A DNA stretch of 64,000 nt from Candidatus Endomicrobiellum guadaloupense (GTDB lineage: Bacteria > Elusimicrobiota > Endomicrobiia > Endomicrobiales > Endomicrobiaceae): NCBI GenBank assembly GCA_031278895.1, contig JAITJN010000037.1, forward strand, positions 1 through 64,000. Direction: 5' to 3'. This document shows positions 7,927-43,270 of this stretch, one piece after another (the first letter of the stretch is position 1; the number at the start of each line of letters is the position of its first letter). The notes beneath the pieces are model-generated. The model was not told the origin of the DNA, searched no databases, and worked only from the letters and a program-made list of their open reading frames with translations. The position numbers and the translations under genes were made by a program.

Positions 7927-10900
7927 ATGATAGCTAAAAATTTTAAAGCTTTAGTTTTAATATTATCTTTATCTTTGTTCATTAATTCCGCAGGATTTGC
8001 GGAGTATAAATCTTATGCGACAAAATACAGCGTACTGGGCAGTAGTCAAAAAGAAATTTACAGTCAATTTGATGAGTACGATATATTTCACGATATTGAA
8101 AGTACAGAGCCTTCTGGAACTATAATTTCGCAAGATAAAGAAGAGCTGCCAGAATCCGTCCAGGAGATAGCAGGCCAAGAGATATTGAATTATTTTAACG
8201 ATAAAAAATACTCAACGATGGAATATTCTCATAAAAGTTGGCTAGAAAAAGATAAACGTTATGAAAGATCTCCAAATACAGATTTAAAAAATCAGTCTTT
8301 ACCACTTCCAATAACAGCTGATCTCCCATTTGATTCAAATCTTTCTCTTTCAGGAAGAAAACTTATAGGTTTTAGCCATACATCAAGAGTATATAATAAA
8401 GAAGAAGCAGGGAAAAGGAAAAATAATTCAACATTTAAGATGGAGCAAGAATTACAGATGAAAGTTCTTGGAAGTATAGGGGAAAGATTAAATGTTAATA
8501 TTGACTATGATGACACTGTAGACAAAAAAGACATATCTCTAATTTACAAAGGCAAACGTGGCGAACTTGTAAAAGAAGCAGCTTTTGGAGATATTTCTAT
8601 TTGTATGCCTGCTACGGAATTTACTGGATATAAAAAAGAGTTGTTTGGACTAAAAGTTGACACAGAATATAAAGGTTTTGGCTTAAATGGTTTTTTTAGC
8701 AAAACAAAAGGCTTATCTGAAGTAAAACGTTTTACAGGAAGTACTCAATTAGAAAGAAAAATTATCGCCGATACAGCTTATGTTAAATTGAAATATTATT
8801 CGTTACTAGCAAACGGCGAAGTGAGAACAATTAAAAACGGCTCTGTGAAAGTATATATAGACTATCAAAAAAATGATCCCAAATATAATTTTTCTTATCC
8901 GACAGGTGTCCTTCTTACAGACATAAACAATACAGCAAGATTTAATTATACAGGTAATTTTGTAACTCTGGTACAAGGCCAAGATTTTATTGTTGACTAT
9001 ACAACAGGTATGCTTGGGTTTAAGACTACTTTGGTTGGCAATTATGTTGTTGCTGTAAGTTATGACTTTAGCGATGGGACATCTCTTCCTGATCCAGCTA
9101 TAATAAAAGATGAGAATAATACCGCAGGGATTACTACAGAACTTAAAACAGTCTATGATTTAGGAAACTTAAAAATAGTTCGCGATAATGGAAGAGGTAA
9201 CTTTTTGCTAGAAATAAAATATTTAAATGATTCTGTCCCTGTAATCATTGATGGAGGAATCCCCGTTGCGTCTTATCCATCAGATATTACGGTTGATTTT
9301 GAAAATGGATACTTCAAACTCAATAATAGATTACACAACTCTTTATATAGCAGTGGAGAACACAAGTATAACTTTTTAACTGAATATCAATATACGATTA
9401 AAATACTAAATTTAAGACCAGGAATTGTTCCACGTTCTGAAAAAATTATTGTTGATGGAAATACTTTGAAAAATGGTGATGATTACATCATTGATTATGA
9501 TATAGGAATTTTGACTATAAAAAATGATGAAGTGATAAAAGAGAATTCTGTGATGGACGTTTCTTACGATTATTCCATTTTTGGTGCAGGAAATGAAACA
9601 TCTCTTGTAGGGGCTAACACAAGATTTAAAGTAATAGATAATTTTTCAGTTGGAGCAAGCATAATACATAATTTTACTGCGAAGGGAAAAGAGCTTCCTG
9701 ATATAAAAAATACTCCTACTAATCTTACAATTAGTGAATGTGATGCAAAAATTACAGATTTAGACATAGACTTATTAAATATGAGCCTTAACGGCGGTGT
9801 TGAATATGCTTTAAGCTCTTACAACAGCAATACTGCTGGAAAAGCATTAATTGATTCTATGGATAATTCTGTTAGAGAAGATATGGCGAATATGCTAGAA
9901 GAAAATTGGTTTCATAGTGCTACAGGGTACCCAACAGTAAGAAGAAACTTAAGAGACTTGTCTTGGAGAAGTTATGAAATAAATCTTAGAGATATTGATC
10001 CATTTTTAGAGATTAATGATGGAGAAAGACAAATCGTTTTAGACGTTGATTATGACGTTAGAGTTTCATCAGAAATAGCTTTTTCTCAAAAACTTTGTTC
10101 AGGATGGGAGGGAATAGACTATTCAAAAAAACTCTATGTTGATATATGGATTAACGATCCGAACTCATACTCTCATGATGTTGTTATAGAGTACGCTTCT
10201 TGCATAAATGAAGATTCTGATGGTTGTGGCGAGCTCGACACCGAAGATACTGATAATACAGGAATTTTGAGTCCATGGAAAGATACAGGGCGACCTTATC
10301 ATAATAGAGATGGAACGGTTTCATTGATAGGCGCTTATAACGGTAAGCTTGATACTGAAGATATAAACGGAAATGGAATATTAGATATGGAAGATGAAGT
10401 AGCAGAAAGCTTTTCTCTTTCAGATCCAAGTGTTACTGTAATAAACACTAATCCAAACGGTTGGAGACAATTAAGAATTCCAATAGATATTAATAACAAT
10501 AACAGAGATATTTGGAGAAATATAAGAATTTTACGTGTGAAAATATGCCAGACAAGAGGTCTTACAGGCAATCAAGGAAGACTAAGCATCGGTAAGATAT
10601 CAATATCAGGAAACAGATGGGAAAAAGCAGGTTTGAATTTAAATGATTTCAACATTTCTTCTATAGGCAGATTTGACGTAAACTACAAATCTCTTATAAA
10701 TAACAGATATTATTTAGATTTATACGGCATAGAGAACACAGTAAAGAAAGATGAAAGAGCTTTAAAGATAGAATATACTGCTTTAGGATCACAAGAACAG
10801 TTTTTAGCAAAATCAGTCTATTTAGGCGAAGCTCTTGATTTGTCAAAATATGAATCTTTAAGGTTTATGGTGTATGCAAAACCTGAAAATGAATATGCTG

Positions 10901-13212
10901 CATTAGGCGATGTTATAATATTTAGAGCAGGTGGGAATGATGATAATTATTTTGAATATAGAGTTGCTGTAACAAATGATGCGTGTTGGCAAGATTGGAA
11001 CTTAATTGTAATAAACCAAAATGCTATTGGCACAAATGCATATTGGTCAACATCAGATCCAAATGCTGAAATTATTGTACATGGAAACCCATCTTTAGAT
11101 ACAATTTCGCAGTTTGTTATTGGTGTGGAATCTTCTGATATAGGAAATAAACGTCAAGTATGGTTCAATGAGATACATGTTACCGGGACTAAACTCACAA
11201 ATGGTTCTGGTTGGAAATCCGGAGGAGATTTACAGTGGAGAGGCAATGATGTATTAGGAACTATAACCGTTGGGGCTTCTAAAAAAACAATTGATAGAGA
11301 TTTCCGTAATATTACTGCTGGGGTCTATAATAGAGACTTCACTGAAGAAAATGCTTATTTTGATTTTGAAGGTTTAAAAACCAATAGCCCTGCAAAAATA
11401 TTTCCTTTAAAAACAGGAATCTCTAGGGTAGAGACAATAACTCCAAGAGTTTCAGAAAATAAGTCAAACTTGGTTTCTTTAAATGAGGATGGTCGTGTTA
11501 TAAAGTATTGCGGATATGCTGAAACTGATTTAAGACCAGGAATAAGGTTTCCAAAAATTGGATTAAAGTATGATCGTTCTATTATAGACACGTCAAAAAT
11601 TAAACGTTTAGAAGACAAAGAAACTTTATCAGGAGCGTTTGTTTATAATGTCCCTGTCAATCTTATAATATTTCCAGTGAACATATCTGCAGATGCAAAA
11701 ACTTCAAGATCATATTTTAAAATTTACCCTGAAATTCCTATAGAAGTATCAAAAGAATTTTTAGGAGTAGACAAAATAAGGCAATATTTAGATATTTCTA
11801 ATTACCATACTTTAGAACAATCAAACATACTAGCGTTGAAATGTCCTTTTAAATTTACGAAAGGTATTACTTTTTCTCCTGGATATACAATAAACATAGT
11901 AAGGGAAAAAAATAGAGATTTCCCAATAGGAATTGAATACGATAAATCTTTAAACCAAGGTGTGGGTGCAAGTCTTGTCTTGGGTCTTGCAGATTGGTTT
12001 TCTCCTGCACTTACATATAGTATTAATACTAAAGAGAATTATAATGTTCGTACAAGTACTAATTCAGAAACTCTTATTATACCTGGGCAAAAGAAGTATA
12101 TAGAAAGGAATGGTATTGGAGAAGTTTCTTGGAATTTAAATGTTTATGACATTACTTCTTTTAGGCTTTTAAAAACTTTATCATTTTCATCTTACTATAA
12201 ACTTCAAGATTTAGATTCTTATGACAATGTTGACAAAAATTTTAAATCAATAGGCTGGACAAGTAAAAAACTTTGGGTAAGAGACAATCCTCTTATGGAT
12301 ATACAACCTTTTTATTCGTCAAATACTTATACTGTTAAAACAATTTTAAATAGAAATGATATTCGTTTTACAGGAAAATATATGCCTTTTGAAGCATTTT
12401 CTTTTAGAGGATTTTTTGCCCCATTAAATTCTCTAAGCGCAAACTGCACTTATACTCAAGGAAACGAAAAATCTTACAAAACAGGCACAAACAATAAAAT
12501 ATGTACAATAATATGGCCTGATATTATTCTTGGAATATCAAATGTTGATAAGTTTTTTTACCAAATGCATATTTTTGACGATACTCAACTCAATTTAAAA
12601 TATAACAATAAAAGTGTAGTGGCTTACAATGTTTCTTATATTGATAGTATTATGAGAGGATTGGATTACAGATTTAAATTCTTAAAGATTTTTGATTTAT
12701 ATCTTGCTTTAGAAAATACAAAGTCTGAAGAATTATCTTATAGTACTTTGAAAACTTTGTTTGATTCTTGTGCAAATAAACATGTATTTCAGAGTGCTCT
12801 AGGTCTAGGGCGATGGCGATTTAGTTTAAGATATGAAAATGAGGAGCGTTGGCAAAAAAATGCTTCAGGAAAATATTCGTCAAATGTTTGCAAACATTCT
12901 TATGTTGGTCAGATAAATGCGGATTTGCTTTTTACATCTGGAATAAGACTTCCTTTAATAGCAAAAGCAATCCCTTTGAAAAACAGAATGATATTCATTT
13001 CAAATTTAAAGTATATAGACCAAAAGTCAGATGTTAATGTTGAAAAGGATAATAATATAAATTATGGGATTGCTGCTAATGCCGATTACGAAATATCAAA
13101 ATATTTTAGATTTATTGCTGGATTAAGTTATGACAGATTTGAATTTAGATACAACAATGATTTAAATTATTACGACTTTACAGTTATAGCTAGACTGACA
13201 ATACAATTTTAG
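7927..13212 (+). CDS. Giant SprA-like outer-membrane/cell-surface protein (1761 aa)
   Basis: Signal peptide. Repeated SprA-type modules such as 'LRPGIVPRSEKIIVDGNTLKNGDDYIIDYDIGILTIKNDEVIKENSVMDVSYDYSIF' and 'GEALDLSKYESLRFMVYAKPE...GDVIIFRAGGNDDNYFEYRVAV...WQDWNLIVINQ'. C-terminal alternating beta-strand pattern ending in aromatic F. Confidence 0.7.
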   Translation: MIAKNFKALVLILSLSLFINSAGFAEYKSYATKYSVLGSSQKEIYSQFDEYDIFHDIESTEPSGTIISQDKEELPESVQEIAGQEILNYFNDKKYSTMEYSHKSWLEKDKRYERSPNTDLKNQSLPLPITADLPFDSNLSLSGRKLIGFSHTSRVYNKEEAGKRKNNSTFKMEQELQMKVLGSIGERLNVNIDYDDTVDKKDISLIYKGKRGELVKEAAFGDISICMPATEFTGYKKELFGLKVDTEYKGFGLNGFFSKTKGLSEVKRFTGSTQLERKIIADTAYVKLKYYSLLANGEVRTIKNGSVKVYIDYQKNDPKYNFSYPTGVLLTDINNTARFNYTGNFVTLVQGQDFIVDYTTGMLGFKTTLVGNYVVAVSYDFSDGTSLPDPAIIKDENNTAGITTELKTVYDLGNLKIVRDNGRGNFLLEIKYLNDSVPVIIDGGIPVASYPSDITVDFENGYFKLNNRLHNSLYSSGEHKYNFLTEYQYTIKILNLRPGIVPRSEKIIVDGNTLKNGDDYIIDYDIGILTIKNDEVIKENSVMDVSYDYSIFGAGNETSLVGANTRFKVIDNFSVGASIIHNFTAKGKELPDIKNTPTNLTISECDAKITDLDIDLLNMSLNGGVEYALSSYNSNTAGKALIDSMDNSVREDMANMLEENWFHSATGYPTVRRNLRDLSWRSYEINLRDIDPFLEINDGERQIVLDVDYDVRVSSEIAFSQKLCSGWEGIDYSKKLYVDIWINDPNSYSHDVVIEYASCINEDSDGCGELDTEDTDNTGILSPWKDTGRPYHNRDGTVSLIGAYNGKLDTEDINGNGILDMEDEVAESFSLSDPSVTVINTNPNGWRQLRIPIDINNNNRDIWRNIRILRVKICQTRGLTGNQGRLSIGKISISGNRWEKAGLNLNDFNISSIGRFDVNYKSLINNRYYLDLYGIENTVKKDERALKIEYTALGSQEQFLAKSVYLGEALDLSKYESLRFMVYAKPENEYAALGDVIIFRAGGNDDNYFEYRVAVTNDACWQDWNLIVINQNAIGTNAYWSTSDPNAEIIVHGNPSLDTISQFVIGVESSDIGNKRQVWFNEIHVTGTKLTNGSGWKSGGDLQWRGNDVLGTITVGASKKTIDRDFRNITAGVYNRDFTEENAYFDFEGLKTNSPAKIFPLKTGISRVETITPRVSENKSNLVSLNEDGRVIKYCGYAETDLRPGIRFPKIGLKYDRSIIDTSKIKRLEDKETLSGAFVYNVPVNLIIFPVNISADAKTSRSYFKIYPEIPIEVSKEFLGVDKIRQYLDISNYHTLEQSNILALKCPFKFTKGITFSPGYTINIVREKNRDFPIGIEYDKSLNQGVGASLVLGLADWFSPALTYSINTKENYNVRTSTNSETLIIPGQKKYIERNGIGEVSWNLNVYDITSFRLLKTLSFSSYYKLQDLDSYDNVDKNFKSIGWTSKKLWVRDNPLMDIQPFYSSNTYTVKTILNRNDIRFTGKYMPFEAFSFRGFFAPLNSLSANCTYTQGNEKSYKTGTNNKICTIIWPDIILGISNVDKFFYQMHIFDDTQLNLKYNNKSVVAYNVSYIDSIMRGLDYRFKFLKIFDLYLALENTKSEELSYSTLKTLFDSCANKHVFQSALGLGRWRFSLRYENEERWQKNASGKYSSNVCKHSYVGQINADLLFTSGIRLPLIAKAIPLKNRMIFISNLKYIDQKSDVNVEKDNNINYGIAANADYEISKYFRFIAGLSYDRFEFRYNNDLNYYDFTVIARLTIQF

Positions 13213-28466: not shown

Positions 28467-31400
28467 ATGCGAAAGATTATAATATTTTTTGTTGTCTTGA
28501 TTTTACTTGTTTGTGCGTACTGTACAAGAGGATATTTTTTAGTTCCTTACTTGCAAAAATATATGAGCAGCAAAACAGGACATAATATATCAATTTCCAC
28601 TTTCTCAGTATCTCCGTTTAAGTTATCTATTAAAAATATTAATGCCGATGGTATTGTAAAAGCCAAAAAAGTTACATTCAAATTAAATCTTCTTAAACTT
28701 TTTTTAAGTATTTTTTCCTCTTTGGAAAATATAAGACAAATTGAAATATCTAACCTTGAAATTAATTTAAAAGAAAATCCAGATACCACTGATGTAAAAT
28801 CAAATAATAGAAAATCTATTTTGAATCTTCCTAAAATGGAGGTTGATGTTTATATTGATAAAGCAACTATAAAGCAAGGTTCCAGTGTTTTTAATCTATC
28901 TAATATTAATGTATATGTTAATAGCAGCACAATAAATATAGGTTCAAATTTACACAGTCTTGGAAGTTCTATTAAGATTGAAGCTTCATTGAAACAGAAA
29001 CAAGATTATCTTTTTGACGGGTCAATACTTCTAGTATCTAAAGATAAAATGAACATGTTTATAACTTCTGAAGGGACTATTGATTTAGTCTCTTTTAATG
29101 CTAATTGGAATATAGTAGTAGTAAATCTTGATTATAGAGGTTTTGATTTTGAAGGAGCATCAGGCACTTTATTAAAAAATGAAAACGGTATTGATATTAA
29201 AATTGGCGGAAACTTTGGAAATCTTAAAGTAAATGGGTTGCTTAGCGACAAGACAGATATGTCTGCATTTATAGATATTTCACAGACCAATAAATCTATG
29301 TCAGGAAAGCTTAATATAGACTTTAAAAAGCAAAGATATTCAAAAGAATTAAGAATTAAATCATCAAAATTAAAAGTTTTTGATTTTGAACTTGTAAGCT
29401 TTGATTTATATGGAAATGAAAATAATAACGGAGCATATAAAGTTATTTGCGATTGTGGTTCGTCTAGAAAATTGGAAGGCGTTTATTTAAAAAATGGAGT
29501 TTATGAAAGTAGTCTATTTGTAAGAGATAAGAAAGTTGGAAATATAAAAGGAAATATAAAGACAGGAGCAACTATTGTTGATGCTAAGAATATAAGTATG
29601 ATCGATATGCCTATAGTTCCTGTAATGGCAGGCAATGGACAAGGAACAATAGATATTTTTGGCAGTATAGATGAAAATTCAGGCAAAATAGATTTCATTT
29701 TCAAAAACTTAGAAGTATCTGGTATGAAGAGAGTTAATGCCGAAGGAGCGATACTACGCGATAGAAATAAATATATATTCAATTTTTGTAAATCTGACAA
29801 CTCAATTTCTTTAAAAAATGTTATTGTTGATGGAAAGCAAGTATTCACAGATTTTAAATTTGAAAGAGTTAATCTTTCAAATGTTTCGCGTATTATAGGA
29901 AATTCTAAAGTCAATATTTCTGGAGTTGCAGACGGGCATATAAAGTATGAAAGTGGTATGGGAACAAAATTTGACATCAAAGCATTTAATGGAAAATTTT
30001 ATGGAAATGAATTTAAAGAATTTAATGGGAAGGTAGAAGCATCTTTAAACAGGATAGATATTAAGCAGTTTGTTATAAAAAACAGCTCAAATACAAGTAT
30101 AGTTGATGTGAAGGGATTAATAGGATTTACAGATGAGAATCCTAAATCCTCAGTATATATTGATTTGAATGGCATTCTTTTTCAAGGTATTAAAACTGAT
30201 GCTCATATTGAATTTCATGGATATTTTTCAAATGGTAAAAATGTAAAAGGATTGGTAAGAGCTATTGATAGCAAAATAGGAGGAGTATCTTTCGGTACTC
30301 TTGAAGCTGACGCGAATATATCAACAAAAAAAATTAAAATATCAAATTTAAAGTCTGATAATGTGATAAATGCTTTAATATCTGCAAATTTGAAAAGAAA
30401 TAAAATAAAATGTGTAATTGATTTCAAAGATATTAATATAGAAGGAATTTATCCAGGTATATCAGGATATTTAGACGCTTCAGTGAAATTTTCAGAACAA
30501 TTAACCAATCCATATATTAAAGTTTCATCTTTGTTGAAAAAAGGCAATTATTTATCTAAAAATTTTTCTTTATCATCTGAATTTTATTATAAAAATGGTA
30601 TTGTAGAAATAAACAAAGCAAATATTGCCTCTGATAAAACGGAAATATTCTTAAATGGACAATATTCAAACTCTGGACATTTATATTTAACCGTAAATAA
30701 TTTAAACGATAAAATCATAAACACATTAATCGGTTTTACATTACCATTCAAAGGAGAACTATTTGGGAAAGGAAAAGTTTCTTTTCTTGGCAAGAATCCA
30801 GTACTTAATTTGTCTCTTGAAACAAAAGGCGCTTATATAAATTCTCTAAAGATAAAAGATTTTAAAGCTAAGGTTAAAATTGCAAATAAAAATATTGAAA
30901 TAAGTTCTGCTTCTGCAAAAATATCTAATAGCGAGATAAGAGTTGATAAAGGTTTCTATAATTTAAACAATAGTAAATATTCTTTAGATTTATTTTTGTT
31001 AAATATTCACGCTGGTCCTGCAGATTTGTTTGGAAGCATAAAAGTATCTGGAGATATGTTAAAAGAAAATGGAGAATCTGTATATAGTGGAATAGTAAAT
31101 ATTAATAATTTATGGTTGAATAAATATAAATTGGATCATTATCTCTTCAATTATTCTTTTAAAAATGGGAATCTAAGATTGTTTCAAAAATCTGAAATAG
31201 AGAAAGATAAGTTTGATTTATCAGGCAAAATTATTTTTAGTGATACATTATATCTAAAGAAACTGAATGTTGTAAAAGGATCTTCATATTTTGATATGTC
31301 CGGAAGTTTTTCTAAAGAGTATATAAATTTTGAGATAGCGGGGTTTGGGATTGATTGGAGATTTATGGCTAATCTTTTTGGTTTGCCAGGTGATCCTGAA

Positions 31401-33107
31401 GGTTTGGCAGATATACATATCAAACTTAAAGGAAAACAGAATGCTCTTGAAGGGAAAATGTCAATAGTTTCATCAAATGGAACATTTATAAATGTTCCAT
31501 TTGATAAATTTGGTGTGTATATAGATTTTTATGATAGTTTAGCTTATATAAAAGAAGCTGTAATTTCAAAGAGAAATAGTGTAGATATTTCTGTTAGCGG
31601 CAGCTTCCCTATTTCTTTTAGCGATGAAGAAATATCTAAAAAATTAGTAACCATAAAGTATGAGATTGAAGACAATAAATTAGACAGCTTAGATTATCTT
31701 TCTGATGGTTTGCTTTCTCCTTTAGCAGGAAAAATGATATTAAAAGGACATATTGAAGGTAGTTATAAAAACTTAACTAGCAATGGAAAGCTTTCAATTT
31801 ATAATGGTGCATTTAAAGCTAATGATTACATTAATAAGATAAAAAATGCGTCGATTGAAATGTCTCTTACTGATAACTTGATTAAAATTGATAAGTTTAC
31901 ATTCAGCTCTGGTTCAGGTGAAGTAAATGTTGACGGCCAAATAAAGTTAAAAAATTTTCAAGTAAAAAATTTTAATATTAGAGCTTTTACTGAAGGGAAT
32001 AAAGGAATTCCTATATATATACCAATGCTCCCTATTACTAAATTTATGGGGTCAAAGTCTATATTAAAGGATTATTCATATGGAGAACCTTTATTTGATA
32101 TTAAAATGTCAGGTAATCTTGAAAACCCTTTGGTTTCAGGATATATTATTTTAGAAAATACTAGATTCACTTTCCCAGGTGAAAGTGATAAAAACTCAAA
32201 TTTTGCAATACCTCCAGGTACAGAGTTTGATTTAGATTTGCGTACTGGAGCCAATACAAGATTTGAAAATTCTTTTGTTTCGGCTTTGATAAACGGATCT
32301 TTACATATAGGAGGTAATATTGATAGTTTGAAACCAGAAGGTACTATTGATCTTACAAGCGGAAAACTAAATTTTGGAATAGGTTCTTTTGACATAATAA
32401 GTTCAAAACTAGAAATATTTAGTGATAATAAAGTCTATATAACTGCTGAAGGTGAAACTATTATTCCTTCAAAAACTGGCGGAGATTCTGAAACTATAAA
32501 GGTACATGTCATGAGAAGTGAATTATTAGAATTATTGACTGGAGAGATTAACGATGCAATAAGTTTTAGTTCAAAAGACAATCCGAATATGGACCCTCAA
32601 AAAGCTTTTGCCAAAGCTATGGGGACAGATCAGGAGAAAGAGATAAATTCTTCAGAGTTTGAAGCTTCACCTAATTTTAGAGCAAAGCAACAAGTTCTAA
32701 GACGTATTGACCAAAATTTTTCAACGCCACTAGCAAAATTATTTTTTCGTAAAATAGGAGTTGCTGATAATTTTAAAGTTTCTTATGTTAGCACAGATGA
32801 TACTATTTCTAATAATGACACACTAGACTTAGTTTATTTATTATCTGGAACAAGGTATACAATGGAGAAAAACTTAAGTAAAAATATTCTTCTTGGATAT
32901 AACTTAACTTTTGATGAATTTAACAAAAAACTTGGATTAAGACATGATATAGAATTACGTTATAGATTAGCTCCAGATCTATTCTTAAAGGGAAATTTTG
33001 AGTTTGATCCTCAAGAAGGAACTAGAAATCCTGACAGATCAATAATGTTTCAGCATCAATTTAGGTTTGGACCATCAAAAAAACATAAAAAGCAAGTGGA
33101 GGAATAA
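28467..33107 (+). CDS. TamB/AsmA-like translocation-assembly (DUF490) protein, 1546 aa
   Basis: Single N-terminal TM, long beta-helical low-complexity architecture. C-terminal TamB pattern 'GSLHIGGNIDSLKPEGTIDLTSGKLNFGIGSFDIISSKLEIFSDNKVYITAEGE...LRYRLAPDLFLKGNFEFDPQEGTRN...MFQHQFRF'. Confidence 0.85.
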   Translation: MRKIIIFFVVLILLVCAYCTRGYFLVPYLQKYMSSKTGHNISISTFSVSPFKLSIKNINADGIVKAKKVTFKLNLLKLFLSIFSSLENIRQIEISNLEINLKENPDTTDVKSNNRKSILNLPKMEVDVYIDKATIKQGSSVFNLSNINVYVNSSTINIGSNLHSLGSSIKIEASLKQKQDYLFDGSILLVSKDKMNMFITSEGTIDLVSFNANWNIVVVNLDYRGFDFEGASGTLLKNENGIDIKIGGNFGNLKVNGLLSDKTDMSAFIDISQTNKSMSGKLNIDFKKQRYSKELRIKSSKLKVFDFELVSFDLYGNENNNGAYKVICDCGSSRKLEGVYLKNGVYESSLFVRDKKVGNIKGNIKTGATIVDAKNISMIDMPIVPVMAGNGQGTIDIFGSIDENSGKIDFIFKNLEVSGMKRVNAEGAILRDRNKYIFNFCKSDNSISLKNVIVDGKQVFTDFKFERVNLSNVSRIIGNSKVNISGVADGHIKYESGMGTKFDIKAFNGKFYGNEFKEFNGKVEASLNRIDIKQFVIKNSSNTSIVDVKGLIGFTDENPKSSVYIDLNGILFQGIKTDAHIEFHGYFSNGKNVKGLVRAIDSKIGGVSFGTLEADANISTKKIKISNLKSDNVINALISANLKRNKIKCVIDFKDINIEGIYPGISGYLDASVKFSEQLTNPYIKVSSLLKKGNYLSKNFSLSSEFYYKNGIVEINKANIASDKTEIFLNGQYSNSGHLYLTVNNLNDKIINTLIGFTLPFKGELFGKGKVSFLGKNPVLNLSLETKGAYINSLKIKDFKAKVKIANKNIEISSASAKISNSEIRVDKGFYNLNNSKYSLDLFLLNIHAGPADLFGSIKVSGDMLKENGESVYSGIVNINNLWLNKYKLDHYLFNYSFKNGNLRLFQKSEIEKDKFDLSGKIIFSDTLYLKKLNVVKGSSYFDMSGSFSKEYINFEIAGFGIDWRFMANLFGLPGDPEGLADIHIKLKGKQNALEGKMSIVSSNGTFINVPFDKFGVYIDFYDSLAYIKEAVISKRNSVDISVSGSFPISFSDEEISKKLVTIKYEIEDNKLDSLDYLSDGLLSPLAGKMILKGHIEGSYKNLTSNGKLSIYNGAFKANDYINKIKNASIEMSLTDNLIKIDKFTFSSGSGEVNVDGQIKLKNFQVKNFNIRAFTEGNKGIPIYIPMLPITKFMGSKSILKDYSYGEPLFDIKMSGNLENPLVSGYIILENTRFTFPGESDKNSNFAIPPGTEFDLDLRTGANTRFENSFVSALINGSLHIGGNIDSLKPEGTIDLTSGKLNFGIGSFDIISSKLEIFSDNKVYITAEGETIIPSKTGGDSETIKVHVMRSELLELLTGEINDAISFSSKDNPNMDPQKAFAKAMGTDQEKEINSSEFEASPNFRAKQQVLRRIDQNFSTPLAKLFFRKIGVADNFKVSYVSTDDTISNNDTLDLVYLLSGTRYTMEKNLSKNILLGYNLTFDEFNKKLGLRHDIELRYRLAPDLFLKGNFEFDPQEGTRNPDRSIMFQHQFRFGPSKKHKKQVEE

Positions 33108-33108
33108 A

Positions 33109-33597
33109 ATGAGTAAGATAAGAGCAATGATATCATCCTTCTTGAAAGATTTTGAGAATTTTGCTGTTAAAGGAAACGCTATTGATATGGCTGTCGGTAT
33201 TATCATAGGGGCAGCTTTTGGTAAAATAGTTGACTCTTTGGTAAAAGATATAATAATGCCTCCTATAGGGTTACTTTTAGGAAATTTTGATTTTACTAAT
33301 TTATCTGTAGTTTTAAAAAGCGGAAAAACATTAAAAGACCCTTATGAGACTCTTGCTGCAGCTCAATCTGCAGGAGCTATAACGATTAATATAGGACTAT
33401 TTCTAAATGTTCTGATTTCTTTTATAATAATAGCGTTTTGTGTATTTATAATGATAAAGTGTATAAGTAAGCTTAAAGAAAAGTCTGCACCATCAGATCA
33501 GGTTAACACAAAAGAATGCCATTTTTGTTGTTCCTCAATACCTCTCAGAGCTGTTAAATGTCCAGACTGCACTGCGGATTTAAATACTCAAAAATGA
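33109..33597 (+). CDS. mscL: Large-conductance mechanosensitive channel MscL with C-terminal zinc ribbon
   Basis: 'FLKDFENFAVKGNAIDMAVGIIIGAAFGKIVDSLVKDIIMPPIGLLLGNFDFTNLSVVL'. C-terminal 'KECHFCCSSIPLRAVKCPDCTADL'. Confidence 0.95.
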   Translation: MSKIRAMISSFLKDFENFAVKGNAIDMAVGIIIGAAFGKIVDSLVKDIIMPPIGLLLGNFDFTNLSVVLKSGKTLKDPYETLAAAQSAGAITINIGLFLNVLISFIIIAFCVFIMIKCISKLKEKSAPSDQVNTKECHFCCSSIPLRAVKCPDCTADLNTQK

Positions 33598-33778: not shown

Positions 33779-36700
33779 CTATGCTGCGCTTAGAATATTT
33801 TTTGCAGTAGATACAGATGTTTCCATTATTTTTGCTACATCATTTATGACTTCTCTAAACGATAATGTATTTATTAAATCACTTGTTACGACAATATATG
33901 TATGTAGCTTTTGATATGGATTATCTTGATTATGACTGTGTACAATAGGATCAATACTCTCTTCTTCATCAAGTTTTTCAATGATATCTTTTGCAAATAG
34001 TACTATCTGCTTATTTAAATTCAATAATGATTCACTGTTTAGAGATTGGTCTTTTTCAATTCTAAGTCTGGTCTGATCAAAGAAATTCTTGAGTGTTTCA
34101 GGAGATTCAAAAATTTTGTTTTCAACATCTGTAATAAACAATGCTGTTAAGAGAATTTTTAAAGTATCTATTACATCATGTTCGTTTATCATGTTAAATG
34201 TTTCTTCATATGATAAATTAAATGCTTGTAGATATTGGTTTACAACATAAGATTCAATAAAACCTCTTAGAAATCCTATGGCTTCCAGAACTGCCTCACT
34301 CTCAGAGCCTGTTTCATTATCGCTTGCTCTTTGTAGAATAATTTCAATGTGTTTACGTACAACATGGCTAACGCCTACGTTATTTAAGGTTATTTTAATT
34401 TCTTGAGATGAAATTGATGAAGGTTTTTGGTGCATTAAATTTAGCAGTTCTCTAATGTTAGTTGTAGTTGTGTCTATATTTTGCTCAAGTATTTTACGTC
34501 CTCTTTTGTAACCTGTATACTTTGCTTTTAATTGCTGTTGTTTGTCAATTACAGCTTCGCCAGAAGTATCATCAATTACTACTAGAGCTAATACATTGTA
34601 TTCTCCTAAATTTGCAAGATGTTCTCTGAGAGATTTATTTTTTAGAATTATTGTATTTCTTTCAACTATAGAGTTTCCTTTTGAGACTTTCTTTAATGAC
34701 TCAAGAACACTCATAATAGATTCAATATCATCAGATTCTTTCGCGTCTATACTTATTCCATCAAATCCTATTCCTAGATATGTTTCAAATATTTCTTCTT
34801 TGGCATTTAATAGATTCACCTGTATGTTAATCCTCATCCCAAATAAGTGCGCTTTAGTTATAAATTTTTTCATAATATCTTTTGTTGTTTCAGATGATAA
34901 TTCACTAATGTCAAAATTATCAATATTAAGTATTATTGTAGTAGCTCCTTCTTTCTTTTTTCTTTCTAATAATGCATTTGTAAAATCTGTATCTGGAAGT
35001 TTTTGATATGTTAGTGTTACCTCATAAAATTTTTCATACTCATCTAATTTGAATAATCTTGTGGCTTTAATGTTTTGTTCTATAGTAATAAGATTTTCGG
35101 GTGTAATGACTAAATCTTCTACACTATATGTTCCTACTAATCCTGAATCTGTATTATCTGTTCGATATAATTTCTGCACACTTTCTTGAGTTGTTGTGTC
35201 AGGTGAAAAACCTATAAAATCCATCATTATTACACCTTCAGAGCTTATTCCAAGATTGGTTATGCTATTAAATTCTTGCATTAAAACAGAATTTGTATTT
35301 AAATCATTAGCAAAGAACTGGACTGCTGATGAAAAATTTTCAAATGAGTCTTGGCCATCCTGTAGTTTTAATCCTATAACCCATATACCTTCTTCATTAC
35401 GTACATAAACTTCATAGATCAGATTGTTAAAAGATGTGTTTACGCTCATTTTATGAATATAATTTCTAGGAAATACATCTGACGAGATGTGTTCAACAAC
35501 TGCAGATGAGTAGTTGCTTTCTTTTATAATTGTTTTTGCATACATAAAAGTACTTGATTCTTTTTCTTTAGAACCTGAAACAAATAAAGTTAATGGTTTT
35601 TTAATATCTGTTTCTATCTGCCATTCGTTTTGAGGTTTAAATAATGTAGAGACTATAAGACCTGCTATTTTTAGTGTAAAGGATAGTAGCATCATTAAAA
35701 TATATTTTATTGAAGTATATAAATTTATTATATACAATACAAAGTTCATAATCTTCATAATAAGATCTAATACTTTTTTTACGCCATTATACTTTGTTTC
35801 TATAGCAGTTAATATTTCTATAATATCCATAGCCTCAGTTATTTTAGGTTTGAACCCAATAATAAGATTTTCCTTAGCAAGTGTTCTAAACAGTATTTCT
35901 AGTGCTAAGTTAATACCAGGGAATATTTTTTCAGCCCAGTAAATAATATCTTTAAGACTTGATACAAATATTCTTGACCCATCGCTTTTTATTTTTTCAT
36001 CATTAGAAGTGTTCGATTTCTGAGAGTATTTAGGTAGTGATTTCAATAAATCAGGAATGGATAATAGTAAAATAACAATAAATTTTATTGATGTTATAAG
36101 GTTTAACTTCTTGTTGATTTCATTTTTTGTATTTTCAACTTTCGTTTGTGCTTCTTCATTCTTTCTATAAGTTGATAAGAACATTGCTATAGCGCCTGAA
36201 CTGCTTATAAGAGAAACAAAATCATGTAATGTAGCAAGTATTAACTTCCCTCCATATCCTATTAATCCTGCAAGACCCATTACTACAATAAATTCTATAA
36301 CATCTGAAAATGTGAGATTTGTTATTCCAGTTTTAAATATTCTGTATATTATAAATACTAGCGCAACTATAAAAGGAGAAATAATTATACTATATGCTGG
36401 GATTGTACTAAATAAACAAGATGTTACTACAAGACTAATGGTAATACCTAACATAAACTTGACAACGTTATCTACTCTCTTAATTCTATCTATACTATTT
36501 GTAACAATTGATTTCGATTTGTTTTGTAATGCTCTTTGAATTTCTTCAATTGAGATCGAAGTGACGTGTTTTTGAGGATACATTGTTTTTTTAAAAGTTA
36601 TTGCTCTAAACAGATCAGCAAAAGAAACAAGAAGTTCTTCTAACCATTTAAAGTTATTGTGTATAAAAAAACGGATTTTATTTTCAGGATTTGCAAATTG

Positions 36701-39205
36701 TCTATGAGCTAATTCATGTTGAATAAAATTTATAAACAGTTTTTGATTAATAGTATTGTTTGCCAAAGGATCAAAAAATAATTGTCTAGCAAGGGTAAGA
36801 TTTATATTAATTTTATCATTGAAGATGTCATATTCCATAACAATACCAGAACCAATGTTGTCTTTTAGTTCAATGATATCTTTTACCTGATCATATAAAT
36901 CTTCATGAAGAGCTAATAATAATTTGCTTTTAATATATGTATTTACAGAAGTAGCAGGAATTTGTAAAGGAACCAGCTCACTTTCAGTTAATTTTGCATT
37001 TAAAATAGTATTTCTTTGCCAAAGCGCATAAGAAGCAACAATAGAAGAAGGAATAAAGATAAGTAAGGGAATAATCATAAAAGGTAAAGCCCACGACATC
37101 ATGGGAATTAAGATTAAAAAAGGGATAGAGACAGTAGCAGAAATAAAATTGATCATAGCAGTCAATCCAGCAGTTTTAGAAGATTTAGCAAGAGGTTGTT
37201 GAGATGAAGTAGAAGGAAGAAGTGGTTGTTGAGTAAAAATGCCATCAGAATGATTGTAGATGTAAGTTTTATCGTTAATTTTGAGAGTTAAAGGTTCAGA
37301 TTTAGAAGAACCGCCAGAAAGAGAGATAGAAATGTCAGAGTCTAAAGAAGAAGCAATTTCTTGTAAGAAGTCGCTCAAAGCTTGAGTAGAGTATCCTCTT
37401 TGAACAAGAACATCAGAAAGACCGATAAGGCGCTGATTTATATCATTTTGAGACATATTAAGAGCAGCTAAGGTAGTAGATAAAATTTTACTTTGTTCTT
37501 TAGCTAAAGAGTGATAAGCTTGTTTAGCCAGTTCAACGCCATCATCAACAGTAGGAGTAATAACGATAAAAGAGATGCCTTGTTTTGCAAGCATGTCATT
37601 TAAGTATTGAGTATGAAAGCCGCCAGTGACAACAACAGAGATATTCTTAGAGTTATCTAAAGATTTGATAACTTTTTCAGTATCAGATAATGAAGAATCA
37701 AAGTGAATATTAAGTTTGTGAGAGTCGTGTAGGAATGAAAGGTTGTCAAAGAAGTATTGATTTCTATCGATATTAACGTTATAGAAAGAGTCAACAAGAG
37801 TTTCATAAGGAGCAAGCAGAGAAAGTTTTTTGTTATCAAGATACTTTATATATAATCGTTTCCATTCTTTAATATGTTGTTTATACCAATCATAGTTGTC
37901 AGAAGTAATACTAGTAGAGAAATAATTATAAAATTCATCAGCAAACCATGATAGAAAAGCGACTTCTTTAGAGCCTTGGTCAGTTGCTAAAGCAATACTT
38001 AGTTGATCTTCAAGGCGTTCTTCTTCATCAAGCATAGAAATAGGGTTAATATTTTTATTAAGTTCAACTTGATTAAAGAGTTTGTTGAGTTCAGGGAAGT
38101 TGATAGAAAGGTCAATGTTGAGTTGTTTAGAGAAATTAATAATGAAAGCATAGAGTTTATCAATGTCCTTGAAGTTAGAAGATTGGTCAGTAATCATTTT
38201 GAAAGCTTGGTATGGGAGAGTTTGTTTAAGGTGTAAGATAAGAGATTTGAGTTGTGTAGAGGCTTGAGAATAATTGATTTTATCGCTTTGTTGAAGAAGA
38301 GCAATAAAAGTGGTGATATTTTTATAAGAACTATTATCAATTTCAATAGAGCCAGACTGTTTATTAAAGATAGGTTGAATATCAATGCCAAACCTTTGAG
38401 CATAATTTGAGATAAGAGCGTAGAATTTCTTAGGAGAAATCTTACCAGAGTGATAATCTTTAAAGAGGGATTCGATTTTAAGTTGTCGTTTATTGGAATA
38501 AATAGATCTAAGGTAAAGGATATCTTTATCAATACTAGAGAGGATAGAAGATATTTCGTTTTGAGAGTAAAGGATGTCACCGAACCGTTGAAGATTTTGT
38601 AGATAAGGGGATTTGTTTTCAAGGCCTTTGATAAGATGAGGGCGATTTGAGATAATGGAATAGTATTCAGGGCCAGTAAGCATACCAGTGTTAAGGATAT
38701 TATTGACGATCTTTTGTTTAGTTTTTTTGTCTTTGATGTTAGAGAGCCAAGAAGTATCAACATCGCCAAAAGCCCCTTCCATATAGACATTTTTGACGCC
38801 ATACTTTTTATCAAACAGTTCAATGATGTAAGCGATGTTCTTTTGTACGTTAGGGTGAAGGTGTAGGTCTTGGATATTGATGATGATGGTATCGCTGGCA
38901 GAGAAGTTGGAGTTAGTAATTTTGCCTAAAGAGTTTGGAATAAAGAATTCGGACAAGATGTGTTTGAATTGTTGGGTAGAGATGATATTGTGTAGAACTT
39001 GAGCAATACTTTGTCCGTACACGTATGATAGTAGAAAACAATTGACTATTATTAATGCTACTACTTTTGTTTTGGTTAAGGGTTGAAGAGTATTTTTGAG
39101 CTGATAAAATCTGTACAAAATTCTTTTAAGCTTTTCACTAAAAGAAAATAGGAATAACAAGTGGTTTTTCAAGAAATTCTTCATGAATCCCCCTCTTGAC
39201 AACAT
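33779..39205 (-). CDS. Giant exported multidomain protein (1808 aa): Tiki/ChaN-like N-terminal region, membrane-embedded HExxH zincin, TIM-barrel-like C-terminal region
   Basis: N-terminal TM/signal 'KVVALIIVNCFLLSYVYGQ'. 'IINIQDLHLHPNVQKNIAYIIELFDKKYGVKNVYMEGAFGDVDTSWL' and 'VVVTGGFHTQYLNDMLAKQGISFIVITP'. TM pair then 'FIQHELAHRQFANPENKIRFFIHNNFKWLEELLVSF' (HELAH at 36704..36718). C-terminal 'ATTIILNIDNFDIS...FGMRINIQVNLLNAKEEIFETYLGIGFDGISIDAKE'. One uninterrupted ORF. Confidence 0.75.
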   Translation of the reverse strand: MLSRGGFMKNFLKNHLLFLFSFSEKLKRILYRFYQLKNTLQPLTKTKVVALIIVNCFLLSYVYGQSIAQVLHNIISTQQFKHILSEFFIPNSLGKITNSNFSASDTIIINIQDLHLHPNVQKNIAYIIELFDKKYGVKNVYMEGAFGDVDTSWLSNIKDKKTKQKIVNNILNTGMLTGPEYYSIISNRPHLIKGLENKSPYLQNLQRFGDILYSQNEISSILSSIDKDILYLRSIYSNKRQLKIESLFKDYHSGKISPKKFYALISNYAQRFGIDIQPIFNKQSGSIEIDNSSYKNITTFIALLQQSDKINYSQASTQLKSLILHLKQTLPYQAFKMITDQSSNFKDIDKLYAFIINFSKQLNIDLSINFPELNKLFNQVELNKNINPISMLDEEERLEDQLSIALATDQGSKEVAFLSWFADEFYNYFSTSITSDNYDWYKQHIKEWKRLYIKYLDNKKLSLLAPYETLVDSFYNVNIDRNQYFFDNLSFLHDSHKLNIHFDSSLSDTEKVIKSLDNSKNISVVVTGGFHTQYLNDMLAKQGISFIVITPTVDDGVELAKQAYHSLAKEQSKILSTTLAALNMSQNDINQRLIGLSDVLVQRGYSTQALSDFLQEIASSLDSDISISLSGGSSKSEPLTLKINDKTYIYNHSDGIFTQQPLLPSTSSQQPLAKSSKTAGLTAMINFISATVSIPFLILIPMMSWALPFMIIPLLIFIPSSIVASYALWQRNTILNAKLTESELVPLQIPATSVNTYIKSKLLLALHEDLYDQVKDIIELKDNIGSGIVMEYDIFNDKININLTLARQLFFDPLANNTINQKLFINFIQHELAHRQFANPENKIRFFIHNNFKWLEELLVSFADLFRAITFKKTMYPQKHVTSISIEEIQRALQNKSKSIVTNSIDRIKRVDNVVKFMLGITISLVVTSCLFSTIPAYSIIISPFIVALVFIIYRIFKTGITNLTFSDVIEFIVVMGLAGLIGYGGKLILATLHDFVSLISSSGAIAMFLSTYRKNEEAQTKVENTKNEINKKLNLITSIKFIVILLLSIPDLLKSLPKYSQKSNTSNDEKIKSDGSRIFVSSLKDIIYWAEKIFPGINLALEILFRTLAKENLIIGFKPKITEAMDIIEILTAIETKYNGVKKVLDLIMKIMNFVLYIINLYTSIKYILMMLLSFTLKIAGLIVSTLFKPQNEWQIETDIKKPLTLFVSGSKEKESSTFMYAKTIIKESNYSSAVVEHISSDVFPRNYIHKMSVNTSFNNLIYEVYVRNEEGIWVIGLKLQDGQDSFENFSSAVQFFANDLNTNSVLMQEFNSITNLGISSEGVIMMDFIGFSPDTTTQESVQKLYRTDNTDSGLVGTYSVEDLVITPENLITIEQNIKATRLFKLDEYEKFYEVTLTYQKLPDTDFTNALLERKKKEGATTIILNIDNFDISELSSETTKDIMKKFITKAHLFGMRINIQVNLLNAKEEIFETYLGIGFDGISIDAKESDDIESIMSVLESLKKVSKGNSIVERNTIILKNKSLREHLANLGEYNVLALVVIDDTSGEAVIDKQQQLKAKYTGYKRGRKILEQNIDTTTTNIRELLNLMHQKPSSISSQEIKITLNNVGVSHVVRKHIEIILQRASDNETGSESEAVLEAIGFLRGFIESYVVNQYLQAFNLSYEETFNMINEHDVIDTLKILLTALFITDVENKIFESPETLKNFFDQTRLRIEKDQSLNSESLLNLNKQIVLFAKDIIEKLDEEESIDPIVHSHNQDNPYQKLHTYIVVTSDLINTLSFREVINDVAKIMETSVSTAKNILSAA

Positions 39206-41396: not shown

Positions 41397-42098
41397 TTAT
41401 TTCCCTGCTGTTAGTTTAAGTTTTAAAACTTTAAATAGATAAGTTATTAAAGTTCCGGGACGAAGTTTTGATTTCCCTGAAAATCTTGTAAGAAAAACTA
41501 TAGGGTATTCTATAACTTTCAAGTTATTTTTTTTGATTTTATATAGAACTTCAGTAACTATAAAAGGATCGCTTGCAGTTAGTTTAGAAGCAAATTTAAC
41601 AAGAGCTGCTCTTTTAAACATTCTATATCCGGAAGTAGTGTCTTCTATTTTGATGCCTAATACAAAGGACAAATAACGTCTTGAAAAACTGCTCACTAAT
41701 TGTCTAATTAATGATCTTTCTTCATCTTTTCCGCCATTAACATAACGAGATCCTATAACAACATCGCAATCTTGTATTGTTTTTAAAAATCCTGGAATAT
41801 ATTTAGGGGAGTGAGAACCGTCGCCGTCCATTTCAACTATATAATCAGCGCCCATATCAAGAGCTTTTAGAAATCCGTCTTTGCCTGCATAACCTCTTCC
41901 TTTTTTTTCTTTTCTTAAAAGAAGATGAACTTTGTTGTTTATGTTTGACAGTTCTTCAACTATTTTATAAGTTTCGTCAGGAGACATATCATCAACAACT
42001 AAAACATCTACATCAGCTCCACAATTTAAAACATCTTCAACCATAAGTTTTATATTGGGAGCTTCATTATATGTAGGAATCATTACTACAGTTTTCAT
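41397..42098 (-). CDS. Polyprenyl-phosphate glycosyltransferase (GT2, DPM1-like)
   Basis: 'MKTVVMIPTYNEAPNIKLMVEDVLNCGADVDVLVVDDMSPDETYKIVEEL', 'GADYIVEMDGDGSHSPKYIPGFLKTIQDCDVVIGSRYVNGG'. Confidence 0.92.
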   Translation of the reverse strand: MKTVVMIPTYNEAPNIKLMVEDVLNCGADVDVLVVDDMSPDETYKIVEELSNINNKVHLLLRKEKKGRGYAGKDGFLKALDMGADYIVEMDGDGSHSPKYIPGFLKTIQDCDVVIGSRYVNGGKDEERSLIRQLVSSFSRRYLSFVLGIKIEDTTSGYRMFKRAALVKFASKLTASDPFIVTEVLYKIKKNNLKVIEYPIVFLTRFSGKSKLRPGTLITYLFKVLKLKLTAGK

Positions 42099-42127
42099 AA
42101 AACCTCTATTTCGGATTTCAAAGAATA

Positions 42128-43270
42128 TTATACATATTCTTCTATTGCATATATAACATCTTTTGGCGGAATTGATTCCATGCAATTGTCAACTAAATCA
42201 CACTCTTGCTTATAGCAAACGACGCATGTTTTATTGGACTGTATTTTTGTACCTTTTGAATATATTTCTATTTCGTTTACTGAAGTTGGACCAAAAAGAG
42301 ATACTACATTTTTTTTAAGTCCAGCAGCAGCATGCAAGGCCATTGTATCACCGCATAAGACTATATCACAAAGATTTATTTTTGCAAAGAAATCAGGGAT
42401 AGTATTGTTAATTCCTGTTGATATAACATTTGGCATGCTTTCTTTTAAAATTAAGTCAATTTCGTTTTTATCATCAGAACTACCAAAAAGCAAAACAAAA
42501 TGTCCTTTTTGCGAGAATGATTTTGCTGTTTCAATAAACCCCTTTGATGTCCATTTTTTTAATTTCCATCTTTTTCCTGCCCCTGGATGGATACCTATAA
42601 TTTTCTTATCATGAGATATATTATTATCTTCTAAAAATTGTTTAGCTTTTTCTACTGAATTTTTTTGCAAAGGAACAATTATTTCATAATTATCTTTTGG
42701 AAGTTCTGCTATTTTAGACATCCAATGTTGATATGTAAAAATATTAGCTCTTTTAAGTTCATCATAGGCGCTTGTTTTAAGCCATTCTTTAGCATAATTA
42801 TTTGAGTATATAATATTTCTATTGTCATCTAAAGAAAAACCCTTTATTTCTGTTTTGTTTGATAGTTTTGTAATAGATAAACTCTCAAAGGCCAAATCTA
42901 AATTAATAACTATGTCAAAAAAGTTATTTACAAGATATTTTATAGCGTTTTCATCATTATGTACTATTTTATCTATAAGATTATTTCCTTCAAGGACTGC
43001 AGCGTTTTTTGTGTCAACAATCCAAGTAATTTCGCTTTTCGGATAAAGTTCTTTTAATCCGTTTAACAGAAATGTGGTTCTTAAAACATCTCCCATTGCA
43101 CCAAGTTTGACAACTAGAATGCGTTTGTTATCTTTTTTCCCTGAAATTTTTAAGTAGTTTCTACATTCTTTACAATGGGCATTATTATTTTTTTGATAAA
43201 CACAAGGTCTATCTAACTGGAAATTTGAACAATCGGTGAAAACTTCGAAAGTATTATTAATTTCTATCAT
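42128..43270 (-). CDS. ADP-heptose:LPS heptosyltransferase-like (GT9)
   Basis: 'KRILVVKLGAMGDVLRTTFLLNGLKELYPKSEITWIVD', 'KIIGIHPGAGKRWKLKKWTSKGFIETA', 'CDIVLCGDTMALHAAAGLKKNVVSLFGPTS'. Confidence 0.92.
   Translation of the reverse strand: MIEINNTFEVFTDCSNFQLDRPCVYQKNNNAHCKECRNYLKISGKKDNKRILVVKLGAMGDVLRTTFLLNGLKELYPKSEITWIVDTKNAAVLEGNNLIDKIVHNDENAIKYLVNNFFDIVINLDLAFESLSITKLSNKTEIKGFSLDDNRNIIYSNNYAKEWLKTSAYDELKRANIFTYQHWMSKIAELPKDNYEIIVPLQKNSVEKAKQFLEDNNISHDKKIIGIHPGAGKRWKLKKWTSKGFIETAKSFSQKGHFVLLFGSSDDKNEIDLILKESMPNVISTGINNTIPDFFAKINLCDIVLCGDTMALHAAAGLKKNVVSLFGPTSVNEIEIYSKGTKIQSNKTCVVCYKQECDLVDNCMESIPPKDVIYAIEEYV

What the first reader, a model, noticed from the sequence alone, without database searches (positions are those of the whole stretch)
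33779..39205. 1808-aa exported protein combining a Tiki/ChaN-like region, a membrane-embedded HELAH metalloprotease and a TIM-barrel-like domain
Seen: one uninterrupted minus-strand ORF with an N-terminal TM/signal. It contains 'DLHLHPNVQKNIAYIIELFDKKYGVKNVYMEGAFGDVDTSWL' with a later 'VVVTGGFHTQYLNDMLAKQGISFIVITP', which looks like the start and end of a Tiki/TraB/ChaN/EreA-type fold. It then has hydrophobic helices flanking 'FIQHELAHRQFANPENKIRFFIHNNFKWLEELL', a zincin HExxH with a glutamate ~20 residues later and M48-like topology. After more TM helices comes a ~400-aa C-terminal region with beta/alpha repeats ('ATTIILNIDNFDIS', 'FGMRINIQVNLLN', 'GFDGISIDAKE', 'NVLALVVIDDT'). Tiki proteins are themselves membrane-associated metalloproteases in animals. 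A bacterial protein with this fold plus an M48-like zincin and a barrel domain is not an architecture I recognise. Inference: an exported processing enzyme or host-interaction factor.
Basis: partly seen in the sequence, partly recalled or inferred. Interest (0 to 1): 0.82.

Follow-up and report, generated by a model that had tools for sequence, protein, structure and literature searches.

The report
Shortened giant protein with TIKI-like header
This 1,808-residue membrane protein of a termite-gut Endomicrobium relative is a cut-down member of an uncharacterised family of giant proteins (up to about 12,700 residues) that runs through the phylum Elusimicrobiota and always begins with the same TIKI/ChaN-type hydrolase-like domain, giving these unexplained giant proteins a first shared, testable feature.

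Summary
The ORF is real and intact, though it probably starts at 39184.

N-domain (residues 47-575): found in 65 of 296 Elusimicrobiota genomes, directly after a membrane helix, at the head of ORFs of up to about 12,700 aa. TIKI/ChaN superfamily is well supported. The superfamily's catalytic pattern (DxH, E, R, GGxH) is conserved in both classes, sister-class members hit Pfam ChaN up to the exact GGFH motif, and Foldseek's most probable hits are ChaN, HopBA1 and EreC.

Zincin: HExxH-x21-E lies in a TM-flanked domain shared by Endomicrobiaceae giants (34 of 37 copies keep HExxH). It resembles M1-type gluzincins, not M48, and is below every family cut-off.

C-terminus: a genus-level "footer" predicted as an alpha/beta domain, barrel and helical bundle (GH84-like architecture), without conserved barrel-mouth carboxylates.

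At the same locus a congener encodes about 5,040 aa, three keep relics and two have lost the gene. This copy is therefore a giant with its middle missing.

Function is inferred: a membrane-anchored hydrolytic header for processing or docking giant envelope proteins. Presence outside Elusimicrobiota was not testable here.

The parts
33779..39205 (-). Gene: 1808-aa ORF including stop; probable true start ATG at 39184 (about 1801 aa)
   Evidence: intact homologous ORFs; dN/dS
39014..39070 (-). N-terminal TM / signal anchor, residues 46-64, preceded by a K/R-rich segment (N-in inferred)
   Evidence: hydropathy; a TM precedes the N-domain in nearly all relatives
37481..39067 (-). Header domain (residues 47-575), TIKI/ChaN superfamily-like, family-defining
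   Evidence: (pLDDT 90.9)
38855..38872 (-). QDLHLH (residues 112-117): D113-x-H115, equivalent of the TIKI E/D-x-H motif
   Evidence: Q112 and H115 invariant in 43/43 and 20/20, D113 in 42/43 and 20/20; RRSP comparison PMC6254334
38777..38779 (-). E143, equivalent of the TIKI second-strand Glu
   Evidence: invariant in 43/43 and 20/20
37763..37765 (-). R481, candidate for the conserved TIKI basic residue
   Evidence: invariant in 43/43 and 20/20; position equivalence inferred
37613..37624 (-). GGFH (residues 528-531): H531, equivalent of the TIKI GxxH histidine
   Evidence: invariant; PF04187 matches in sister-class relatives end exactly here
37019..37168 (-). TM hairpin, residues 680-729
   Evidence: hydropathy
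36593..36868 (-). Zincin-like domain (residues 780-871): strands then HExxH helix then glutamate helix
   Evidence: pLDDT 84-95 here
36614..36718 (-). HELAH (830-834) - x21 - E856 ... D864
   Evidence: HExxH in 34/37 copies, E and D in 37/37
35645..36466 (-). TM-rich stretch, residues 914-1187, about six TMs; no homologue found in relatives
   Evidence: low-confidence model
33782..35608 (-). Footer region (residues 1200-1808): alpha/beta subdomain, beta/alpha barrel-like (about 1360-1570), helical bundle, conserved tail ILSAA
39276..41396 (-). Neighbour: PMT_2 glycosyltransferase-PAP2 fusion; marks the syntenic locus
33067..33597 (+). Neighbour on the other side: MscL channel
28467..33107 (+). 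Neighbour: TamB-like protein (1546 aa)
   Evidence: NF047952, E 4.9e-12, below cut-off; synteny

Best explanation
SHOWN: the protein is an internally shortened member of an Elusimicrobiota family of giant membrane proteins. It keeps the family header (one TM plus a TIKI/ChaN-type domain), the zincin-like module and the genus-specific footer, and lacks the thousands of variable residues that relatives carry between them. INFERRED topology: the header anchors in the inner membrane N-in, so the TIKI-type domain, the zincin-like domain and the barrel-like footer face the periplasm or cell exterior. INFERRED mechanism: in the giants the header leaves the Sec channel first and acts as a membrane-bound hydrolase station. 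A TIKI-type His/acid site and, in Endomicrobiaceae, a gluzincin-like HExxH...E site would cut or condition the downstream chain (self-processing) or envelope or partner-cell proteins. The footer would act as a non-catalytic binding or terminal-docking domain. The window copy keeps both stations without the cargo. Estimated likelihood: family membership and shortened state about 0.95; TIKI fold about 0.9; TIKI site catalytic rather than only ligand-binding about 0.6; self-processing or docking of giant proteins as the role about 0.35.
For: Family: the header profile matches 65 of 296 Elusimicrobiota genomes, including all seven genomes of other families in the order and ORFs up to about 12,700 aa. 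In six sister-class genomes it gives 19-75 matching segments each. The header is at the N-terminus, almost always right after a TM. Domain order header-zincin-...-zincin-footer in genus giants. TIKI: the DxH/E/R/GGxH residues are invariant across two classes, apart from D113 in one of 43 sequences, and match the 2His/2Glu plus Arg site of RRSP. Six of 20 header members hit PF04187, one above its curated cut-off, and the four matches inspected end at GGF/YH. The highest Foldseek probabilities go to ChaN, HopBA1 and EreC, with Bcr135 also listed; ChaN, HopBA1 and Bcr135 are the comparison set in the RRSP paper. Zincin. Shortening: the syntenic PMT-X-MscL-TamB locus in G077 holds about 5,040 aa over two contigs with an exact 119-nt overlap, flanked by the same neighbours.
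Against: No Foldseek match reached E<=1e-3 for either model. Profile-profile comparison of the header with ChaN did not give a sensible alignment. The header has D instead of the superfamily's E in the first motif. HExxH is lost in three genus paralogues. No barrel-mouth carboxylate is invariant in the footer. No biochemical evidence and no measured active-site geometry. Self-processing has no direct support, since no cleavage sites or proteomics were available. The same locus is decayed or empty in siblings, so the gene is dispensable in related symbionts.
Confidence: 0.5

Rival explanations
1. Decay intermediate: the gene is a giant whose middle was deleted during genome erosion in a flagellate endosymbiont. 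It is still open by recency and no longer has the giant's function.
For: The genus fits Endomicrobiellum, which undergoes progressive genome erosion (PMC11257099).
Against: 1808 codons without a stop in a genus where relics are riddled with stops. All header and zincin catalytic-type residues are intact. dN/dS of 0.35 against the relic, although part of that reflects the shared ancestry.
Confidence: 0.3
2. The header is a ChaN-like ligand (for example haem or metal) binding domain, not a hydrolase. The giants are adhesion or uptake scaffolds and the short form is a membrane-bound binding protein.
For: Pfam's match is to the ChaN haem-binding branch, and ChaN has the highest single Foldseek probability.
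Against: The invariant set DxH, E, R, GGxH is the full catalytic-type set of the hydrolytic TIKI branch.
Confidence: 0.2
3. A stand-alone envelope protease of the cell (membrane-embedded zincin) unrelated to giant-protein biology, as in the first reader's picture.
For: Conserved HExxH-x21-E flanked by TMs. The short form has no cargo.
Against: The syntenic relative is a giant, all close homologues are parts of giants, and some paralogues lack the second histidine.
Confidence: 0.12
4. The TIKI resemblance is an artefact of helix-rich sequence and short His motifs; the header is a different alpha/beta fold.
For: Helix-driven false hits occur in the same domain (PAH_ZNF598; 14-3-3 and calmodulin). 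Foldseek E-values are not significant.
Against: The PF04187 match exceeds its curated cut-off and, in the four cases inspected, ends at the catalytic GGFH motif. Motif order and strand positions agree with the superfamily.
Confidence: 0.08

Closest known systems
TIKI superfamily (ChaN PF04187, Ere esterases, HopBA1, RRSP, animal Tiki)
   Same: Strand-DxH, strand-E, basic residue, strand-GGxH order; membrane or extracellular context in several members; sister-class headers hit PF04187
   Different: Asp replaces Glu in the first motif; a large helical insertion (about 300 aa) between the second and third motifs; always the N-terminal header of long, often giant, proteins
Giant proteins of Omnitrophota and Elusimicrobiota (PMC10066038, PMC11573180, PMC12419801)
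   Same: Very large ORFs with multiple TMs, poor annotation, in host-associated or predatory-like lineages; peptidase domains reported in some
   Different: Here a common header domain is identified for the Elusimicrobiota giants; whether Omnitrophota giants share it could not be tested
Gluzincins
   Same: HExxH in a helix, third-ligand-type Glu in the next helix; weak M1 profile matches
   Different: Loop between HExxH and E varies from about 6 to 30 residues; below all cut-offs; no M48 match
GH84 O-GlcNAcase / hexosaminidase architecture
   Same: Predicted alpha/beta domain, beta/alpha barrel and C-terminal helical bundle; Foldseek probability up to 0.99
   Different: E only 1.8e-3, poor global superposition, no conserved Asp-Asp pair or invariant barrel-mouth acid

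Membership tests
Elusimicrobiota giant-protein (header) family, defined here | Header domain at the N-terminus after a TM | tested here: met
   (E 2e-192, residues 47-575)
Elusimicrobiota giant-protein (header) family, defined here | Giant length (over 5000 aa); common but not universal among header proteins | tested here: not met
   1808 aa here; about 5,040 aa at the syntenic locus of G077
TIKI superfamily | Acid-x-His, Glu and GxxH catalytic-type residues (2His/2Glu) in order | tested here: met
   D113, H115, E143, H531 conserved; Asp instead of Glu in the first position; criteria from PMC6254334
TIKI superfamily | Conserved basic residue near the active site | tested here: inconclusive
   R481 invariant; spatial equivalence not measured
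TIKI superfamily | Profile match to a member family | tested here: inconclusive
   The window domain itself does not match PF04187; sister-class members do, one above the cut-off
TIKI superfamily | Common core fold | tested here: inconclusive
   Confident model; Foldseek's highest probabilities go to ChaN, HopBA1 and EreC, but E>0.1
TIKI superfamily | Hydrolytic or metallo-dependent activity | not testable with these tools
   Needs biochemistry
Peptidase M48 | M48 profile match | tested here: not met
   No M48 family among Pfam or NCBIfam hits at E<=1
Gluzincin / M1 | HExxH-x18-E with PF01433 above cut-off | tested here: not met
   20.6 bits against cut-off 27.7; spacing x21
Zincin (broad) | HExxH in a helix, strands before, acidic ligand in the following helix | tested here: inconclusive
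   Secondary structure and conservation agree; geometry not measured
GH84 | Catalytic Asp pair at the barrel mouth | tested here: not met
   No invariant acids at predicted strand ends in eight footers

The most novel reading that the evidence does not exclude
The TIKI-type header defines a previously unrecognised, phylum-wide class of self-processing or membrane-docked giant proteins. It is expanded to tens of copies per genome in some Elusimicrobiota, and in flagellate endosymbionts it is stripped down to header plus footer before loss.
Probability: 0.3. Interest if true: 0.82.

Novelty: new variant of a known kind. Interest (0 to 1): 0.66.

Why it matters
Giant proteins are unusually frequent in Elusimicrobiota and related phyla and have been described as poorly characterised, with no assigned function categories (PMC11573180). 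A shared, alignable, confidently modelled header with a catalytic-type residue set gives a handle on what such proteins do. The header alone (about 530 aa) can be expressed and assayed, where a 12,000-aa protein cannot. The natural short form in this window is a ready-made minimal construct. The locus series (about 5,040 aa, 1808 aa, relics, absence) also shows how giant genes are dismantled during symbiont genome reduction.

Tried and rejected
Pfam and NCBIfam on the whole protein: nothing above cut-off. PDB sequence search with single sequence and profiles: only helix-rich or motif-driven chance hits. Profile-profile comparison of header and ChaN alignments: no sensible alignment. Foldseek against viral structures: nothing. 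Plasmid, phage and viral-contig searches with the header: no relative, so no sign of a mobile element. TraB/PrgY/GumN (PF01963) in the phylum: no match above cut-off, so the ChaN branch is the closer one. Pfam on the variable middles of two genus giants: no family; one order-level giant carries TPR, calcineurin-like and cNMP-binding matches. M48 assignment rejected. GH84 membership rejected on catalytic residues, fold resemblance kept. A repeat or duplication origin of the 880-1200 TM region was not supported, as no relative matched it.

Full report
OBSERVATION. The ORF at 33779-39205(-) is intact and encodes the motifs quoted. A Shine-Dalgarno-like AAGAGGGGG precedes the second ATG (39184), so the protein is probably about 1801 aa. 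Hydropathy places TMs at 46-64, about 680-729 and at about six sites in 914-1187.

ORGANISM. The window lies in a 1.3-Mb, about 31% GC genome. The nearest named record is Endomicrobium sp. Gx485_bin199 (Elusimicrobiota), which is syntenic; the neighbouring PMT-PAP2 gene is 92% identical there.

A GIANT-PROTEIN FAMILY. Searching 40 relatives showed that residues about 45-590 recur at the start of ORFs of up to 12,656 aa, and that residues 1196-1808 recur at the end of genus giants. Profile mapping gave the order header, zincin, variable middle, further zincins, footer. Over 296 phylum genomes the header profile matched 65: all seven genomes of other families in the order, most other genera of the same family (28 of 35, counted) and only 14 of the window's own genus. 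In six genomes of a sister class it gave 19-75 matching segments each, in ORFs of up to 12,444 aa; segments are not always separate proteins. The footer is essentially confined to the window's genus. The zincin runs through Endomicrobiaceae directly behind the header.

HEADER IS TIKI/CHAN-LIKE. Neither the window domain nor any of 43 relatives matched a relevant Pfam family. The AlphaFold model from 43 sequences is confident (mean pLDDT 90.9). Foldseek against the PDB gave no significant E-value, but its highest probabilities went to ChaN 2g5g (0.33), HopBA1 5t09 (0.25) and EreC 6xcq (0.20); Bcr135 3b55 was also listed. ChaN, HopBA1 and Bcr135 are the TIKI comparison set used for RRSP (PMC6254334). 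Independently, a PF04187 (ChaN) search of phylum genomes hit header-bearing giants of the sister class. Six of 20 members match, the best at E 5.7e-7 and 30.2 bits against a cut-off of 27.7. In the four cases inspected the match ends exactly at the GGF/YH motif. Across both classes Q112, H115, E143, R481 and H531 are invariant, and D113 is in all but one. These correspond to the E-x-H, E, basic residue and GxxH set shown essential in RRSP, with Asp for the first Glu. Cautions: some helix-driven false hits occur in the same domain, and profile-profile comparison with ChaN failed.

ZINCIN-LIKE MODULE. HELAH (830-834) and E856 are 21 residues apart. In 37 aligned copies HExxH is kept in 34, and E and D864 in all 37, while the loop between HExxH and E varies widely. 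The model places three strands, then a helix holding HExxH, then a helix holding the Glu (pLDDT 84-95). Weak profile similarity is to M1 aminopeptidases, not M48. Three genus paralogues have HELRR or HELRK and are probably inactive.

FOOTER. The model (local pLDDT mostly 80-95) shows an alpha/beta subdomain, seven to eight beta/alpha units and a helical bundle. Foldseek's best matches are GH84 enzymes (probability up to 0.99, E 1.8e-3), which to my knowledge have the same three-part layout. Since no barrel-mouth acid is invariant among eight footers, a catalytic GH84 role is unlikely. The tail ends in a conserved ILxAA.

HISTORY OF THE LOCUS. The order PMT-PAP2, X, MscL, TamB is conserved in close relatives. 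In G077 the N-terminal 727 aa sit on one contig end and a 4352-aa continuation on another. The ends share an exact 119-nt overlap and the outer neighbours are the same, giving about 5,040 aa. In G135 and L021 the gene is in pieces, in G013 and G005 relics remain, and in G015 and G010 nothing is detectable. The window gene therefore lacks about 3,200 residues of middle relative to G077. dN/dS against the G135 relic is 0.35, versus 0.18 and 0.24 for its neighbours.

FUNCTION. The evidence supports a membrane-anchored, extracytoplasmic protein with a hydrolase-type header. That the header processes or docks giant chains is inference. Rivals (decay intermediate, ligand-binding ChaN-type, stand-alone protease) remain open.

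NOVELTY. Giant proteins are known from Elusimicrobiota and Omnitrophota, and a preprint on giant genes (West-Roberts et al. 2023, cited in PMC12057145) could not be read here. No source I could read mentions a TIKI-type header.

Noticed in passing
window 7927-13212 (+): 1761-aa ORF with SprA/Sov-like similarity (TIGR04189, E 3.5e-34, 117 bits against cut-off 200): possible type 9 secretion translocon relative in Elusimicrobiota; any link to export of the giant proteins is untested.
   Followed up: no
window 28467-33597 (+): TamB-like 1546-aa ORF followed by MscL; conserved with the giant-protein locus in close relatives.
   Followed up: partly
L212 and L213 (G092:C9 and C5), first 119 bases; L214/L218 (G077): Contigs repeatedly break at the TM hairpin before the zincin (residue about 690); two paralogous contigs in G092 share their first 119 bases exactly, suggesting recent gene conversion or recombination between giants.
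   Followed up: partly
L027, L022, L033, L036, L128-L132 and other footers: All intact footers end in a conserved ...K/R-x-(I/V)L-x-(A/S)A tail; whether it is a processing or degradation signal is unknown.
   Followed up: no
L042 (G026:C1, 11,603-aa ORF): An order-level giant carries long TPR arrays, a calcineurin-like phosphoesterase match and a cNMP-binding match (L043) behind the header.
   Followed up: no
G062 (one search set, 1.6 Mb in one contig, same family): A complete same-family genome lacks the header altogether while congeners have about 16-23 candidate copies, so loss is not limited to the window's genus.
   Followed up: no
window 41397-43270 (-): Glycosyltransferase run (GT2, GT9, PMT-PAP2) on the same strand just upstream of the gene; possible co-transcription.
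   Followed up: no
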